From NCBI GenBank assembly GCA_011525625.1, contig WYAX01000015.1:124001-188000 (forward strand): a stretch of 64,000 nucleotides of DNA, read 5' to 3'. The first letter of the stretch is position 1; each line of letters starts with the position of its first letter. The stretch is from Nitrospira defluvii (GTDB lineage Bacteria; Nitrospirota; Nitrospiria; Nitrospirales; Nitrospiraceae). Shown here in pieces: positions 23,840 through 61,216 of the stretch. The translations under genes were made by a program, and so were the position numbers. The notes under the pieces are model-generated. The model saw only the letters and a list, made by a program, of their open reading frames with translations. It was not told the DNA's origin and made no database searches.

Positions 23840-25531
23840 CTATTCGATGACAATCTGACGGTCCACCTCGCCTGAGAACGTCGGATCGTTGGACAGAAAC
23901 ACGACCGACCATGGCTGGTCCTTGCTGCACAGCCGACGTAACAGGAGGGTGCGTGTCGCGGGCAGCATGTTGTGCAGGGTTCCGTCGAAAATCAACACCT
24001 GCGGCCGTGTCACGATCGCGCGGGCCACGAGAATTCGGAGAATCTGGCTGATGGACAGGGTGATCTCCAGGCCGGAGACCGCTGTGTGCAATCCCTCCGG
24101 CAGCGCATCGATGTCCCTGTCCAGTTCGACAAAGCGCAGAGCCCATTGGAGATCGTGATACTCGATGCCTGGCCGTCCCAGCGTAATGTTGTCTTCCAGC
24201 GTGCCGTCGAGCAGCGTCGGATGAGAATCTAGGATGAGGCCGCGCACCCGGCTGATGGAGGTGTGCTTCACCTCGACCAGATTCATTTCGTTGTACCGGA
24301 CGAAGCCTGTGGTCGGGGGGTGAAGCCCGGCCAGCACCTTGGCCAGCGCGGTTTTAGCGGGGTTGCTGTTACAGAGGACTGCCACTTTCTCTCCGGGTGA
24401 CACCTCCAAGGAGACGTTCTGGAACATCGTGCTTCCATCCGGACCGGTATAGGACAGGTTCCGGCAGGTCAGCCGAATGCCTGATCCGCCGAACTGCCTC
24501 GTCGGCACATTCTCCTTGGCCCGCTCTTCTTCCGTCGGCAGCGAAAACACGGCGGCGATTTCCCGGCAGGAGACGAAGGTGAAAAACATGGCAACCATCC
24601 GTCGTGCCAACGTGTCCATATTCAGCAGCAGATTCCCGACCAGTACCTCGGCGGCAGCGAATTGGCCCACGGTCAGTTGCCCGTCGACCACGAGCAGCCC
24701 GGCGGTAATGATGAGCCCGCTGTGGCCGACCACCTGCCAGAGAGCGGCGGCCTTGTATTGCCGGCCCGTCAACGTGTCAGAACGGCGTTGTCGAATACGG
24801 GCATAGAGTCGGGTCAGGCCGTCGGTGCGTTCCAGCAGATAGGGGCTGTCGCCTGCCGCGCGAAGGTGCGGGAGGTTGTGTGCGATGTTTTGGATCCAAC
24901 CGAAAATCTGGTAGTGCAGTCGGGACATCTCCAGGGTGATGAAAAAACCGCCGCGACCGAAGAGCGTCAGCAGTCCGACGAAGCCCAGGATCAGGACCAG
25001 AACGTAGAAGATGAAGTAGGGGTGAAACAGGATCAGCATGGTCATCCCGATGGTGCCGACCACGGCGACGTTGAACAAATCGGCCACCATGGCAACCAAG
25101 GCTCGCGTGAGCAGGTCGGCCTCCATGAATCGATGGGCCTGTTGCGGCGCGAAGGTATCGTCGCGTAAGCGCGGCAGCAGACGCGTGAAGGCGATGGCGA
25201 TGCGTGTATAGATCCGCTGCTGAAGCGTTTCGACCGCGCGGGCCTGGAGCACGCGGAAGGCGGCGACCCCGGTCAGTGAGCTGGCGACGAAGATCGTCAG
25301 CGTAAAGATCATCCTCGGCTCCATGGCAAAGGAAAAGGTGCTGACCAATTCCTGGACGGCGATGGGGACGCAGAGGAGGAACAAGCCGATCGCCACGGCA
25401 TAGGAGGCGATAATGCCGAGCATCGACCGTTCGAGCGTGAGGAGGAGGCTCAGGTGCGTGAAGATGTCGCGGAGGACCCGGGTCAGCTGATATTGCGGAT
25501 AGGCCTGGTTGGATGTGGGCGTTTGGATCAA
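23840..25531 (-). CDS. ABC exporter-like protein with degenerate nucleotide-binding domain
   Basis: A 563-residue half-transporter: an N-terminal membrane domain with about five to six helices (about 40-330) followed by an ABC-type domain. Every catalytic motif departs from consensus. Walker A reads CNSNPAKT instead of GxxGxGKS/T, the signature is LSISQ instead of LSGGQ, Walker B ends IFDG so the catalytic Glu is Gly, and the H-loop region reads LSNDPTF with no His. The Q-loop position (RGLILDSHPTLLDGTLEDNI) also lacks Gln. The fold-defining stretches around these motifs (FQNVSLEVSPGEKVAVL, HPTLLDGTLEDNI) are intact and there is no frameshift. It may bind but not hydrolyse nucleotide, or have another function. 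Upstream same-strand genes encode a TSUP permease and an exported protein. Confidence 0.8.
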   Translation of the reverse strand: MIQTPTSNQAYPQYQLTRVLRDIFTHLSLLLTLERSMLGIIASYAVAIGLFLLCVPIAVQELVSTFSFAMEPRMIFTLTIFVASSLTGVAAFRVLQARAVETLQQRIYTRIAIAFTRLLPRLRDDTFAPQQAHRFMEADLLTRALVAMVADLFNVAVVGTIGMTMLILFHPYFIFYVLVLILGFVGLLTLFGRGGFFITLEMSRLHYQIFGWIQNIAHNLPHLRAAGDSPYLLERTDGLTRLYARIRQRRSDTLTGRQYKAAALWQVVGHSGLIITAGLLVVDGQLTVGQFAAAEVLVGNLLLNMDTLARRMVAMFFTFVSCREIAAVFSLPTEEERAKENVPTRQFGGSGIRLTCRNLSYTGPDGSTMFQNVSLEVSPGEKVAVLCNSNPAKTALAKVLAGLHPPTTGFVRYNEMNLVEVKHTSISRVRGLILDSHPTLLDGTLEDNITLGRPGIEYHDLQWALRFVELDRDIDALPEGLHTAVSGLEITLSISQILRILVARAIVTRPQVLIFDGTLHNMLPATRTLLLRRLCSKDQPWSVVFLSNDPTFSGEVDRQIVIE

Positions 25532-25724
25532 AAGTGCTCCTACCGCGTGGGGCGCTGGTAGGAGTTATCAGCCGGGCGCGGAAGGGCGGTCGGCGGTTCT
25601 CGGTGAACTCCATCACCGTTGGACTCGTCAGGAACTGTGCGAAGTCTAGATCGGCACCCTTGCTGCCGTCAAGACAATCGGCGGTTCTGTGCAGGATGAT
25701 GCTGTGGCACACGCCGGACAGGGG

Positions 25725-55656: not shown

Positions 55657-55986
55657 TTACCCGCGGACTAGGACGTAGGCCAATGTCGCCAGAGAAAGCA
55701 GTGCAATCGCGACCAGGAGGCTCCGAGCCACAGAGAGCGATCGTTGTGTTGTGCGCAAGGCCGCCTGGAGCTCTTCGATCGTGTTGGCTTGAACCGCGAT
55801 GGTGCGTTGATGGGCATCGACTTGTTCGTGAAGCGCGGCGACAATCGGGTCGACAGTGGTCGGCGGTTCGGCGGGAACCGGCGTGCGAAGGCGGCCGAGG
55901 GTCTTTAATAGCTCAGGGGCGTTGTCCACGACCACGGGCAGCAACTTCTTGGCAACCTGCAGCGCGGCGATCCACGGAATGTTCAT
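55657..55986 (-). CDS. Small protein with coiled coil and C-terminal membrane anchor
   Basis: A 109-residue protein: an N-terminal amphipathic helix (LQVAKKLLPVVVDNAPELLK), a coiled-coil-like region (VAALHEQVDAHQRTIAVQAN, then TIEELQAALRTT) and a C-terminal membrane helix (LLVAIALLSLATLAYVLVRG). Tail-anchored topology. No family recognised. It is divergent from the motor-like gene at 56253, with about 265 bases between. Confidence 0.55.
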   Translation of the reverse strand: MNIPWIAALQVAKKLLPVVVDNAPELLKTLGRLRTPVPAEPPTTVDPIVAALHEQVDAHQRTIAVQANTIEELQAALRTTQRSLSVARSLLVAIALLSLATLAYVLVRG

Positions 55987-56252
55987 GCCGACCTATCCAA
56001 ACCGTTGTTCAAACATACTCCTGCCTATTCATGACACAGGGGAGATGCCCAAATCCACCTGCCGTGAGGCGGCAAAAAACTCCTGCCTGTCCCGGTAGTT
56101 CTTGCCGGGTGACCTTGTTCTTCCCAGGGCACACTCTTTCAACTGACTGAATTGTGGCCAGTTTCAGGAGGAGGTTCCTCTGGCTCGATTGTTGAACAGA
56201 GTGATTCCCGGTGTGGTCGCAAGCTTGGGTCTTTTCTGGAGGAACGGGCGTC

Positions 56253-57479
56253 ATGATGTCTATCTGGGAATTCTTCGGCCGAGATATAACGCTCTTCGGT
56301 GAACTTCACAGCCCGATGTTGAGCTGGCTTGGCTCAGGCGGGTTGATCACTCTATTTCTCTGGCATGCCGGACGGTTGATGTCGGCCATCTCCAGTGGAC
56401 AGGCCTGTTACATGCGTGTGTGGCCCGCACTGGAGCGTCTCGCCGTCAGCCGAAAAAGTCTCCAGGCCGAATGGCTGGTGGTCCCACATCTGAGGGAGGT
56501 CAAGCAAGCAGCGAATCAAAGCGGCGCACAACCAGAACGGGTCGATCTGGACGATCTCCACACGTTGGACAAGGCGATGCGTTGCGAGCCGCGCCTTGAG
56601 CAAGCCTGGTTACACTTTCGAAAGACCTTTGTCGTGGAGCGTACCGCGTGGTTCATCGAACCGAAAGTGTTCGCGACCCGGACGGCAGCGGAATTTTTCC
56701 CGCGCGATCTGCTGAATAGCCGGTTGAATCTAGCCTTCTACCATCAGTTTCCGTCGTTGATTACGGGGGGCGGGTTGTTGTTCACGTTCCTGGCCATTCT
56801 CATCGGCCTGAGTAAGCTGCATGCGGATGGATCTCATATCGTCGGCATTCAGGGGTTGATCAACGGGTTGGCCGGAAAGTTTCTGACGTCGATTGTGGGA
56901 TTGCTCTGTGCCAATGTGTTTGTGTTGCTTGAGAAGTCGGCCTTGCACCGCCTGGCGACGACTCAGCAGCAGTTTGTGACGATGGTCGATGAGCTCTTTC
57001 CTCGCAAAACCATGGAGCAAATGTTGGAGAACTTCACCCCGGGGACTGGGTCCACGAAAGCTTCAGCCGGCAAGGGCGTGATTCCCGGCGATCTCGGGGA
57101 TCGACTAGTCGGGACCCTGACCGATCGCTTGAATCCCACCGTCATTGCGCTGAGGGAGGCTGTAGAAGCGCTGGGTCGGCGGGATCACGGTGGTCGCGCT
57201 GCAGCTCCGGATCGGCTGGCAGAGGACTTGTCACGGGTCATGCAGCAGACGATGGCGACGCCGATCCAAGAATTGAATCAGGCGATTCAGACGCTGGCCC
57301 GTTCTGTTGAAGACCTCAAGCAGGAGCGTCACTCGGCCGCTCCCGAAGAGGAGCTGACCATGTTCGATGACGAGGTGCCGCTGCAGGGGGATGAGGACGT
57401 CATCCCGGATGACAGTATGCGTGGGTTGCGCTGGTTTGCCAACTGGCGGCAAGGGGCTGCCATAAAGGAGGCGGCCTGA
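56253..57479 (+). CDS. MotA/ExbB-like membrane motor subunit resembling ZorA
   Basis: A 408-residue inner membrane protein. There are three likely membrane helices: one near the N-terminus (SWLGSGGLITLFLWHAGR), and the pair FPSLITGGGLLFTFLAILIG and TSIVGLLCANVFVLLEK in the MotA/TolQ/ExbB arrangement. The cytoplasmic tail (about 250-408) is predicted helical. Together with the OmpA-domain protein one base downstream it looks like a proton-driven stator pair, closest in layout to ZorA/ZorB of Zorya defence rather than flagellar MotA/B, as no flagellar genes are near. ATG 56253 has GGAGGAAC about 10 bases upstream. Shorter than typical ZorA (about 700 residues). Confidence 0.65.
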   Translation: MMSIWEFFGRDITLFGELHSPMLSWLGSGGLITLFLWHAGRLMSAISSGQACYMRVWPALERLAVSRKSLQAEWLVVPHLREVKQAANQSGAQPERVDLDDLHTLDKAMRCEPRLEQAWLHFRKTFVVERTAWFIEPKVFATRTAAEFFPRDLLNSRLNLAFYHQFPSLITGGGLLFTFLAILIGLSKLHADGSHIVGIQGLINGLAGKFLTSIVGLLCANVFVLLEKSALHRLATTQQQFVTMVDELFPRKTMEQMLENFTPGTGSTKASAGKGVIPGDLGDRLVGTLTDRLNPTVIALREAVEALGRRDHGGRAAAPDRLAEDLSRVMQQTMATPIQELNQAIQTLARSVEDLKQERHSAAPEEELTMFDDEVPLQGDEDVIPDDSMRGLRWFANWRQGAAIKEAA

Positions 57480-57480
57480 G

Positions 57481-58233
57481 ATGCACACGAATTCGTCGGT
57501 GGATTCCCCGGAACATTCGTCGGTGTTGACCATCGGGGTGACGGACTTGATGACCTCATTGGCCGTGATTTTTATCCTCCTGTTCAGCGCGTATGTCACC
57601 AAGGTCTCCGAAACGGACGCGCAGACGAAGGCGTCGATCCCCGACCCCACGCCTGAGCCACGTGCGACAAAGAGAACGACGGAGGATATCAGAGGGGTGT
57701 TGCGGGATCATTTCCAGCGGTTTGATTTGTCGTTGGATGCCGATTCAACGGATCCCCATGTGGTACGCATTGTCGTGCCCGATGCCTTGTTGAACTTTGA
57801 GTTCGGGAAGGGAACGCTCTCCATGGTCGCTGATCAATTCCTCGCGGAAGCAATGCCGACGTATGCCGCGCTCTTGTGCGGCGCCATGCGGGATCGCATT
57901 GATTCGCTGGTGATCGAAGGGCATACCGACGATCGAGGGTCGGATATCTATAATCTGAAACTGAGCCAGGAACGCTCGCTCAATGTGATGGTCAAGGGGC
58001 TGGAGGTCATCAAAGATTCAGCGCCCTGGGCCTATCGTTGCTTCCAGGAGAAGACTTCCGCTAGTGGTCGAGGGCGACAGGACTTGGTGCTGGATCAATC
58101 CCGCGAGCTGGACCGGGAGAAGAGTCGACGGGTTGTGTTTAAGATTCGCCTGCGATCGATGGACCAATTGGCAGAAGCGAGTCACCTTATGCAACCACTG
58201 GAATCCGCGACAGTCAGTTCTCGCCTGTTCTAG
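57481..58233 (+). CDS. OmpA-domain MotB-like protein resembling ZorB
   Basis: A 250-residue protein with a single N-terminal membrane helix bearing an ion-path Asp (GVTDLMTSLAVIFILLFSAY, Asp22), then a peptidoglycan-binding OmpA domain (about 90-230) with FEFGKGTLSMVADQFL, VIEGHTDDRGSDIYNLKLSQ and KSRRVVFKIRL. This is the MotB/ZorB architecture: Asp in the channel helix, OmpA anchoring the stator to the cell wall. AAAGGAGG before ATG 57481, one base after its partner gene. No ZorC, ZorD or ZorE gene follows; the next gene is on the other strand. Confidence 0.7.
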   Translation: MHTNSSVDSPEHSSVLTIGVTDLMTSLAVIFILLFSAYVTKVSETDAQTKASIPDPTPEPRATKRTTEDIRGVLRDHFQRFDLSLDADSTDPHVVRIVVPDALLNFEFGKGTLSMVADQFLAEAMPTYAALLCGAMRDRIDSLVIEGHTDDRGSDIYNLKLSQERSLNVMVKGLEVIKDSAPWAYRCFQEKTSASGRGRQDLVLDQSRELDREKSRRVVFKIRLRSMDQLAEASHLMQPLESATVSSRLF

Positions 58234-58420: not shown

Positions 58421-59269
58421 CTAGCGGCTGCCGGCCTGTTGTGCGTCCCTTGCACAACGAAATCCCACATCGTTTCGTTTGGCGTCGGGTGCGTATCCGG
58501 CGCGATTCGCGGATCGTATCGCCTTCGAGTCGTTATTCCAGGCGCCTCCCCGCAAGCTTCGTAGTGGACCGGCTTTGGGGCCGGTCGGATTGTCGCGCGG
58601 GCTGAATTGGTAGTAGGTGGAGTCGTACCAGTCGGCCACCCACTCCCAAAGGTTGCCGGCCAGGTCGTAGATTCCGTTGGGGGTCCTACCGAGTTCTAAC
58701 TGTCCCACATTGCTTACGGTGTCATAGCCTCGCCACGCGGTTTGTCCTGCGGTTGTGTGCCCTTTTGTCGGGCGTGCGTGGCCCCAGGGATAGGTGCGGC
58801 CTTCGGTGCCGCGTGCCGCAAACTCCCATTCCGCTTCGGTCGGTAGTCGTTTCCCCACCCATCGGCAGTAGTCGCGTGCATCGAACCAGCTCACGCCGAG
58901 GACCGGCTTCCGTGCGTGAGTATTGAGGTTCGCTTCGTGCCACTTGAAGGGCGGGTCCGGCTTTTGGGCATGAAGAAATTCAGCGTAGTGAGACACCGTC
59001 ACTTCATAGGCATCCAGGTAGAAGGCATTGACCGTGACTCGATGGACCGGCTGTTCATCATCCTGTCCGCGATCGTCTCCCATGGCGAACTCGCCGGTGG
59101 GGACCAGAATCATCGGTGCATCACGGGCCGGGTTGCCGGAGGCGGAATGTGATTGGAATGAATGGGGGGGTGATGGTTGCACGGCGAGGTCGTGGCTGCG
59201 GCTGAGGTCGGCGCATACGGCCGACAGGAGCACGGCCACATGGTAGGTGAACAAAGAAATACGTCGCAT
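58421..59269 (-). CDS. Exported SUMF1/formylglycine-generating-enzyme-like protein
   Basis: A 282-residue protein with a signal-like N-terminus and the FGE-sulfatase fold: MILVPTGEFAMGDD, HRVTVNAFYLDAYEVT, RLPTEAEWEFAARG, and NLWEWVADWYDS followed by LRGGAWNNDS and DVGFRCARD. The active-site Cys pair of true formylglycine-generating enzymes is not both present (only the Cys in GFRCARD is in place), so a non-catalytic or alternative role such as EgtB/GldK-like is possible. It is convergent with the motor genes. Confidence 0.8.
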   Translation of the reverse strand: MRRISLFTYHVAVLLSAVCADLSRSHDLAVQPSPPHSFQSHSASGNPARDAPMILVPTGEFAMGDDRGQDDEQPVHRVTVNAFYLDAYEVTVSHYAEFLHAQKPDPPFKWHEANLNTHARKPVLGVSWFDARDYCRWVGKRLPTEAEWEFAARGTEGRTYPWGHARPTKGHTTAGQTAWRGYDTVSNVGQLELGRTPNGIYDLAGNLWEWVADWYDSTYYQFSPRDNPTGPKAGPLRSLRGGAWNNDSKAIRSANRAGYAPDAKRNDVGFRCARDAQQAGSR

Positions 59270-60460: not shown

Positions 60461-61216
60461 CTAGCGGGGCGAGATGGCGATTTGCCTGAATGTCACCATG
60501 CGACCGGCCGGTGCGGTCGTGCGATGTTTGATGAAGTGAATGGTGCGGGCAAGGGCGAAGAGATCTAACGCAGTGCCGACCTTTTGGTTGTGTCCAATTC
60601 GCAGGACCTCGTCGGCGGCTGATTCGAGGAGCGCGATCGCGTCGGCTTCCGGGAGGCCGCGTGGTTGGATCAGCTCCAGCTCATCCATGCCGAATTTCGT
60701 CAGGCCGAGGGTGTAATACCAGTCGGAGCCTGCGTCATCGGTCTCCTGATGGTGGACGGTGACATGGTCCCGCGTCACGAAGACCGTTAACGGCCGGTCG
60801 TTCCAGTCGGAAGGATTCAGATACTCATGGCAGGCGACGTCGAACGCGGTGCCGTCGGTGAGTAACGTCAGACCACGGGCAAGTCGGGCAGCAACCAGTA
60901 CGGTGTCCCCTCTGTTGCCTGGTGAACTCGCGGACGGCGAGACGACGCCGAGCTGCTGGTGATCCCAGGTGAGGACAGACTGCCAGTGCAGGGCCTCTGT
61001 CTCGGGCAGGCTGGCCAGGACATGGGCGCGCCATGGACCGTGGGAGGCGCTGGCGCGCCCATCCTCGTGACGATCGGTCCACAGGAGTGGCCCTCCGTAG
61101 TGGACGTCGTACCAGACGGTCAGTTCGTCGAGCGTCGGTGGGATCCCTCGATAGCCGATCACATACAACGGCAACTTGGCGGGTGCAGGCTTCGGGAATT
61201 TTTTCCGAATCTTCAT
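60461..61216 (-). CDS. Hypothetical protein
   Basis: A 251-residue soluble protein with alternating strands and helices. Segments such as PLYVIGYRGIPPTLDELTVWY, VACHEYLNPSDWNDRPLTVF and YTLGLTKFGMDELELIQPRG may represent two similar alpha/beta domains. No signal peptide, transmembrane segment or known motif. It lies between the peroxiredoxin and typA genes on the same strand. Confidence 0.5.
   Translation of the reverse strand: MKIRKKFPKPAPAKLPLYVIGYRGIPPTLDELTVWYDVHYGGPLLWTDRHEDGRASASHGPWRAHVLASLPETEALHWQSVLTWDHQQLGVVSPSASSPGNRGDTVLVAARLARGLTLLTDGTAFDVACHEYLNPSDWNDRPLTVFVTRDHVTVHHQETDDAGSDWYYTLGLTKFGMDELELIQPRGLPEADAIALLESAADEVLRIGHNQKVGTALDLFALARTIHFIKHRTTAPAGRMVTFRQIAISPR

What the first reader, a model, noticed from the sequence alone, without database searches (positions are those of the whole stretch)
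56253..58233. Orphan ZorA/ZorB-like motor pair without Zorya effector
Two translationally adjacent genes encode a MotA/ExbB-like protein with a long helical tail and an OmpA-domain protein with Asp22 in its membrane helix. Both are non-flagellar by context. The layout matches Zorya AB sensors, but no ZorC, ZorD or ZorE is in place and the ZorA-like part is only 408 residues. It may be an uncharacterised envelope motor, a minimal defence module using distant or new effectors, or a Tol/Exb-like energy transducer. The tail-anchored coiled-coil protein at 55657 (divergent) could be a third part.
Basis: partly seen in the sequence, partly recalled or inferred. Interest (0 to 1): 0.65.

Follow-up and report, generated by a model that had tools for sequence, protein, structure and literature searches.

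The report
Stand-alone Zorya-type motor in Nitrospira
Two adjacent genes encode a small ion-driven motor of the kind known from the Zorya anti-phage system, but in Nitrospira it has none of Zorya's other parts, is inherited by nearly every species like an ordinary core gene pair, and goes together with having a flagellum, so it has probably been turned to another job.

Summary
The pair is real: ZorA-like 56253-57479 and ZorB-like 57481-58233, one base apart. Profiles, structure search and tree make it Zorya type I-like, not Mot, Tol or Exb; the same genome has separate MotAB, TolQRAB-Pal and three ExbBD pairs. Ion-path residues (ZorB D22; ZorA T178, S213) are kept. It is not a Zorya defence system: no zorC/zorD neighbour or genomic homologue, and a ZorA tail of about 180 residues against 430-620 in the canonical systems compared. 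It is in 29/29 genomes of the genus and in 101/162 Nitrospirales genomes, at lineage-specific housekeeping loci with no shared companion. It is under purifying selection (dN/dS 0.07-0.23), follows the neighbours' tree, and ZorA was not found on plasmids. The proposed third gene is missing from 6 of 17 loci. Unexpected lead: presence tracks the flagellum (97 of 101 carriers have FliG; within-genus odds ratio 25, p=2e-5; urease control shows none). Best reading: a domesticated, effector-free ZorAB motor with an envelope role, perhaps motility-linked. Defence with distant effectors is not excluded.

The parts
56253..57479 (+). ZorA-like motor subunit, 408 aa: N-terminal helix, cytoplasmic domain with beta-hairpin (126-141), membrane helices (about 160-192 and 196-248), short helical tail
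   Evidence: PADLOC ZorA1 E=2e-22; six best Foldseek hits are type I ZorA; AlphaFold secondary structure; T178 and S213 align with E. coli ZorA T147 and S184
57481..58233 (+). ZorB-like subunit, 250 aa: one membrane helix with invariant D22 and a periplasmic OmpA-type peptidoglycan-binding domain
   Evidence: PADLOC ZorB1 E=1e-39; Pfam OmpA E=1e-7; five best Foldseek hits are ZorB; D22 aligns with E. coli ZorB D26
56237..56243 (+). Shine-Dalgarno-like TGGAGGA before the ZorA-like start
   Evidence: sequence; inference
57464..57471 (+). Shine-Dalgarno-like AAAGGAGG inside the 3' end of the ZorA-like gene, before the ZorB-like start
   Evidence: sequence; inference
55657..55986 (-). Small coiled-coil protein with a C-terminal membrane helix; proposed as a third part, not supported
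   Evidence: found in 11 of 17 genus loci; no defence family hit

Best explanation
A Zorya type I-like ZorA/ZorB motor that has become a stand-alone, vertically inherited core component in Nitrospira and relatives. Inferred mechanism: five ZorA-like subunits surround two ZorB-like helices in the inner membrane; ZorB is anchored to peptidoglycan by its OmpA domain; ions pass along ZorB D22 and ZorA T178/S213, and the ZorA ring turns or changes shape around the fixed ZorB; the short cytoplasmic stem passes this to a partner encoded elsewhere, in an envelope function that is probably not anti-phage defence and may be tied to motility. Shown here: family, kept key residues, absence of ZorC/ZorD and of the long tail, core vertical inheritance, co-distribution with flagella. 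Inferred from homologues: 5:2 assembly, ion flow, rotation. Unknown: partner and exact function.
For: Zorya-type by profile, PDB profile search and Foldseek. Key residues kept in 28 orphans and 12 canonical systems. No ZorD or ZorC in the genome, with positive genomes in the same searches; no defence-family neighbour. Tail 152-229 aa against 432-618 aa. 29/29 genomes of the genus, same locus in 16/16 examined; 101/162 genomes of the order. No companion shared between contexts. dN/dS 0.07-0.23 and tree congruent with neighbours. No ZorA hit on plasmids. Co-occurrence with FliG, not with urease.
Against: No experiment; the partner is unknown. Membership of the complex in a 5:2 form was not modelled. 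ZorE and ZorF were not searched genome-wide, and the ZorC model missed one known ZorC (G312), so effectors elsewhere are not excluded. Some defence genes are core in some taxa. The flagellum association could reflect lifestyle or shared ancestry.
Confidence: 0.62

Rival explanations
1. Flagellum-linked motor (a specific form of the best explanation): the pair supports flagellar motility or a motility-dependent behaviour, for example as accessory energiser, surface sensor or for peptidoglycan work, and is lost after the flagellum is lost.
For: 97 of 101 carriers have FliG against 17 of 61 non-carriers; within-genus odds ratio 25, p=2e-5; in g2 the one carrier has FliG and the four non-carriers lack it; urease shows no such link.
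Against: 17 flagellated genomes lack the pair; it is not near flagellar genes; the genome has its own MotAB; genomes are not independent and no species tree was made.
Confidence: 0.3
2. Core defence sensor: the pair detects envelope damage by phages and acts through effectors encoded elsewhere in the genome.
For: ZorB peptidoglycan-binding and ion residues are kept; relatives are defence systems. Loss together with the flagellum would also fit defence against phages that use the flagellum.
Against: No ZorC/ZorD in the genome; ZorAB alone is reported insufficient and the ZorA cytoplasmic extension is required (PMC8565338, PMC11890865); core, syntenic, slowly evolving distribution is unlike the sporadic canonical systems.
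Confidence: 0.2
3. A Tol-, Exb- or Mot-type energiser that only resembles ZorAB.
For: Same superfamily; OmpA domain also in MotB.
Against: Best matches are ZorA/ZorB in every search; MotAB, TolQRAB-Pal and three ExbBD pairs are present separately.
Confidence: 0.04
4. A decaying remnant of a Zorya system.
For: Effectors are missing and the tail is short.
Against: Purifying selection, invariant key residues and retention throughout the genus.
Confidence: 0.02

Closest known systems
ZorA/ZorB of Zorya type I (E. coli 8QYD, Shewanella ANA-3 8VVN)
   Same: Fold by Foldseek, domain order, ion-path residues, peptidoglycan-binding domain, adjacent gene order; orphans lie next to a type I Zorya group of the same phylum in the tree
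   Different: Tail about 180 aa after the E227 landmark instead of 430-620; no zorC/zorD; core and vertically inherited rather than sporadic
ZorA/ZorB of Zorya type II (Sulfuricurvum kujiense 8VVI)
   Same: Motor core and peptidoglycan-binding domain; type II ZorA can also be short in total (378 aa)
   Different: The orphan has the larger type I-like N-terminal part; no zorE beside it; separate branch in the tree
Flagellar MotAB
   Same: Superfamily of peptidoglycan-anchored 5:2 motors; Asp in the B-subunit helix
   Different: Sequence and fold closer to ZorAB; separate MotAB in the genome; not in a chemotaxis or flagellar cluster
TolQR and ExbBD
   Same: Superfamily of 5:2 motors
   Different: Foldseek E of 0.02 or worse; OmpA-type domain in the B subunit; both systems present separately

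Membership tests
ZorA/ZorB protein family | Sequence and fold relation to ZorA and ZorB above other 5:2 motors | tested here: met
   (NCBIfam cut-offs not reached: divergent)
ZorA/ZorB protein family | Ion-path residues (ZorB Asp; ZorA Thr/Ser ring) | tested here: met
   D22, T178, S213 kept in all compared
ZorA/ZorB protein family | Peptidoglycan-binding OmpA domain in ZorB | tested here: met
   Pfam OmpA; T149, D150, L161, R165, R216 kept; binding itself not tested
Zorya anti-phage defence system (types I-III) | Effector genes zorC+zorD, zorE, or zorF+zorG with zorAB | tested here: not met
   No neighbour; ZorD, ZorC and DUF2894 absent from the genome; ZorE and ZorF not searched genome-wide
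Zorya anti-phage defence system (types I-III) | Long ZorA cytoplasmic rod | tested here: not met
   152-229 aa against 432-618 aa after E227; a solved type II rod is shorter, about 280 aa (PMC11890865)
Zorya anti-phage defence system (types I-III) | Protection against phages | not testable with these tools
   needs experiment
Flagellar MotAB stator | Best match to MotA/MotB and flagellar or chemotaxis gene context | tested here: not met
   the genome's MotAB is elsewhere
TolQR / ExbBD | Best match to TolQ/ExbB and TolR/ExbD, with TolA/TonB partner | tested here: not met
   those systems are elsewhere in the genome
5:2 peptidoglycan-anchored rotary motors | 5:2 assembly and ion-driven rotation | not testable with these tools
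   only single-chain prediction was available

The most novel reading that the evidence does not exclude
A Zorya-type ZorAB motor has been domesticated in Nitrospirales as a core, effector-free, flagellum-dependent cell-envelope motor, a further job for the 5:2 motor family in organisms that also keep MotAB, TolQR and ExbBD.
Probability: 0.3. Interest if true: 0.8.

Novelty: new variant of a known kind. Interest (0 to 1): 0.6.

Why it matters
ZorAB is described as the sensor-motor of a defence system and is reported not to be sufficient for defence by itself. A core, effector-free ZorAB under purifying selection indicates that this motor can be kept for another use, which bears on what it does mechanically and on how defence and housekeeping machines exchange parts. 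It concerns Nitrospira, which includes major nitrite oxidisers and complete ammonia oxidisers. It also means that ZorA/ZorB hits alone should not be counted as defence systems in genome surveys. The flagellum link is a concrete, testable lead.

Tried and rejected
Coiled-coil protein at 55657 as third part: rejected (11 of 17 loci in the genus, not shared by other lineages). PilZ-like protein beside ZorA in L089, L094, L097, L173: only within one syntenic context, so not a general partner. FGE-family protein downstream at 58421: convergent and specific to the context of this genus. ZorC by Pfam PF15611: no hit in 61 genomes but the controls did not ring, so PADLOC ZorC and ZorD models with positive genomes were used instead; the ZorC model missed the ZorC of G312, so its negatives are weaker. 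Plasmids and phages: no ZorA hit; ZorB gave only remote hits. The one scan of named genomes was filled by Nitrospirota (80 of 80 kept loci), so occurrence of the short form in other phyla is open.

Full report
Observation. The ZorA-like frame runs from ATG 56253 to 57479 (408 aa), the ZorB-like frame from 57481 to 58233 (250 aa), with one base between stop and start and a Shine-Dalgarno-like sequence before each.

Identity. PADLOC gives ZorA1 (E=2e-22) and ZorB1 (E=1e-39). NCBIfam Zorya models are hit below their cut-offs, so it is a divergent relative. Pfam does not recognise the ZorA-like protein, and MotA_ExbB matches only 2 of 49 relatives weakly. Against solved structures, the ZorA profile hits only ZorA below E=0.01, and the ZorB profile hits the three solved ZorB (E 1e-10 to 1e-12) well before MotB (7e-4). 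AlphaFold models (ZorA mean pLDDT 66, ZorB 78) give type I ZorA as the six best Foldseek hits, with TolQ only from E=0.02, and ZorB as the five best hits. The ZorA model has a beta-hairpin in the cytoplasmic domain, a feature described as particular to Zorya-type proteins (PMC12505986). The ZorA model has low-confidence parts, mainly in the tail.

Key residues. T178 and S213 of the ZorA-like protein align with T147 and S184 of E. coli ZorA, and D22 of the ZorB-like protein with D26 of E. coli ZorB. All three are kept in 28 orphans and 12 canonical systems. In the OmpA domain T149, D150, L161, R165 and R216 are kept in all 28 orphans; position 148 is H or Y. By motif and constant offset they correspond to residues tested for peptidoglycan binding and defence in ZorB (PMC11890865); that correspondence is inferred.

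Other motors in the same genome. The MotA_ExbB hits are MotAB beside chemotaxis genes (C2), a TolQ-TolR-TolA-TolB-Pal cluster (C35) and three ExbBD pairs (C32 twice, C4) (names from reading the translations). The pair is an additional motor, not a substitute.

Not a complete Zorya. No tested neighbour matches a defence model. The ZorD model gives no hit at E<=1e-10 in the window's genome; hits of full strength (580-724 bits) occur only in the four genomes with complete systems, while weaker hits near 250 bits elsewhere are probably general SNF2 helicases. ZorC is absent from the window's genome and was found in three of the four positive genomes. DUF2894 (ZorG) is absent. ZorE and ZorF were not searched genome-wide. 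In the same phylum, loci with long ZorA carry zorB, zorC and zorD in order, as do plasmid copies, so companions would have been seen. After the E227 landmark, orphan tails are 152-229 aa and canonical ones 432-618 aa; the solved type II protein is shorter (378 aa in all). Published work reports that ZorAB alone does not defend and that the ZorA cytoplasmic extension is required (PMC8565338, PMC11890865).

Distribution. ZorB is in 29 of 29 genomes of the genus, and the pair sits in one conserved neighbourhood (HU to TypA) in 16 of 16 genomes examined. In the phylum 100 of 396 genomes match, mostly with a 400-430 aa ZorA in two families; long forms are sporadic. In the order, 101 of 162 genomes at least 90% complete carry the short form. 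All 80 named loci kept by the genome scan are Nitrospirota, including Candidatus Nitrospira defluvii; ZorA is 384-460 aa where complete, and ZorB follows it except in four loci, at least some cut by contig ends. ZorA has no hit on plasmids. Several lineage-specific neighbourhoods were seen, with no gene family common to them apart from the pair.

Evolution. dN/dS for close pairs is 0.07-0.18 (ZorA) and 0.07-0.23 (ZorB), similar to neighbouring genes other than TypA. In the genus the ZorAB tree shares 10 of 14 splits with a tree of four neighbours; the only conflict with a supported split has 55% support. In a joint tree all 28 orphans are split from all canonical systems with 99% support and lie next to a type I Zorya group of the same phylum. 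Descent from a type I Zorya by loss of zorC and zorD is plausible but depends on the root.

Flagellum link. In the 162 genomes 97 of 101 carriers have FliG, against 17 of 61 non-carriers (odds ratio 63). Stratified by genus the Mantel-Haenszel odds ratio is 25 (p=2e-5), from g2, g21 and g6. Urease, also a patchy trait, shows no positive association (odds ratio 0.69, p=0.31; stratified 0.25, p=0.17). Limits: genomes are not independent, nine genomes could not be assigned to a genus, and no species tree was made. The relation is one-sided: carriers are nearly always flagellated, but 17 flagellated genomes lack the pair. The test was suggested by a first look at 61 overlapping genomes, so it is exploratory.

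Interpretation. The evidence supports a domesticated, effector-free ZorAB motor. 5:2 assembly, ion flow and rotation follow from homology with solved complexes and were not tested. A motility link is the most specific lead; a defence role with unlinked effectors remains possible. The Tol/Exb alternative and the three-gene alternative are not supported.

Novelty. I found no paper in the open library that describes an orphan ZorAB in Nitrospirota; the library lacks most subscription journals. I class it as a new variant of a known kind.

Noticed in passing
window 25552-25626 (-): Fluoride riboswitch (Rfam RF01734, 54 bits) on the minus strand just upstream of a 563-aa ABC-type exporter-like frame (23840-25531) rather than an evident crcB or eriC gene.
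   Followed up: partly
window 58421-59269 (-): FGE-family protein convergent with the ZorB-like gene; its NCBIfam matches include GldK/GldJ, lipoproteins of the gliding and type 9 secretion machine, below cut-off. Found next to the pair only in the context of this genus.
   Followed up: partly
L087 (G333) and L088 (G319): Two Nitrospiraceae genomes carry both the short orphan pair and a complete type I Zorya with long ZorA, zorC and zorD.
   Followed up: partly
L089, L094, L097, L173: A small PilZ-like protein (by reading; possible c-di-GMP receptor) lies one or two genes from ZorA in one syntenic context.
   Followed up: partly
phage record MT837639.1, 1841-2254: A 6.5 kb phage record from human faeces encodes a stretch with 29% identity to the ZorB OmpA domain.
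   Followed up: no
window 60461-61216 (-): Conserved 251-aa protein in the same neighbourhood with no family above cut-off (weak DUF4262/DUF4026 matches).
   Followed up: no
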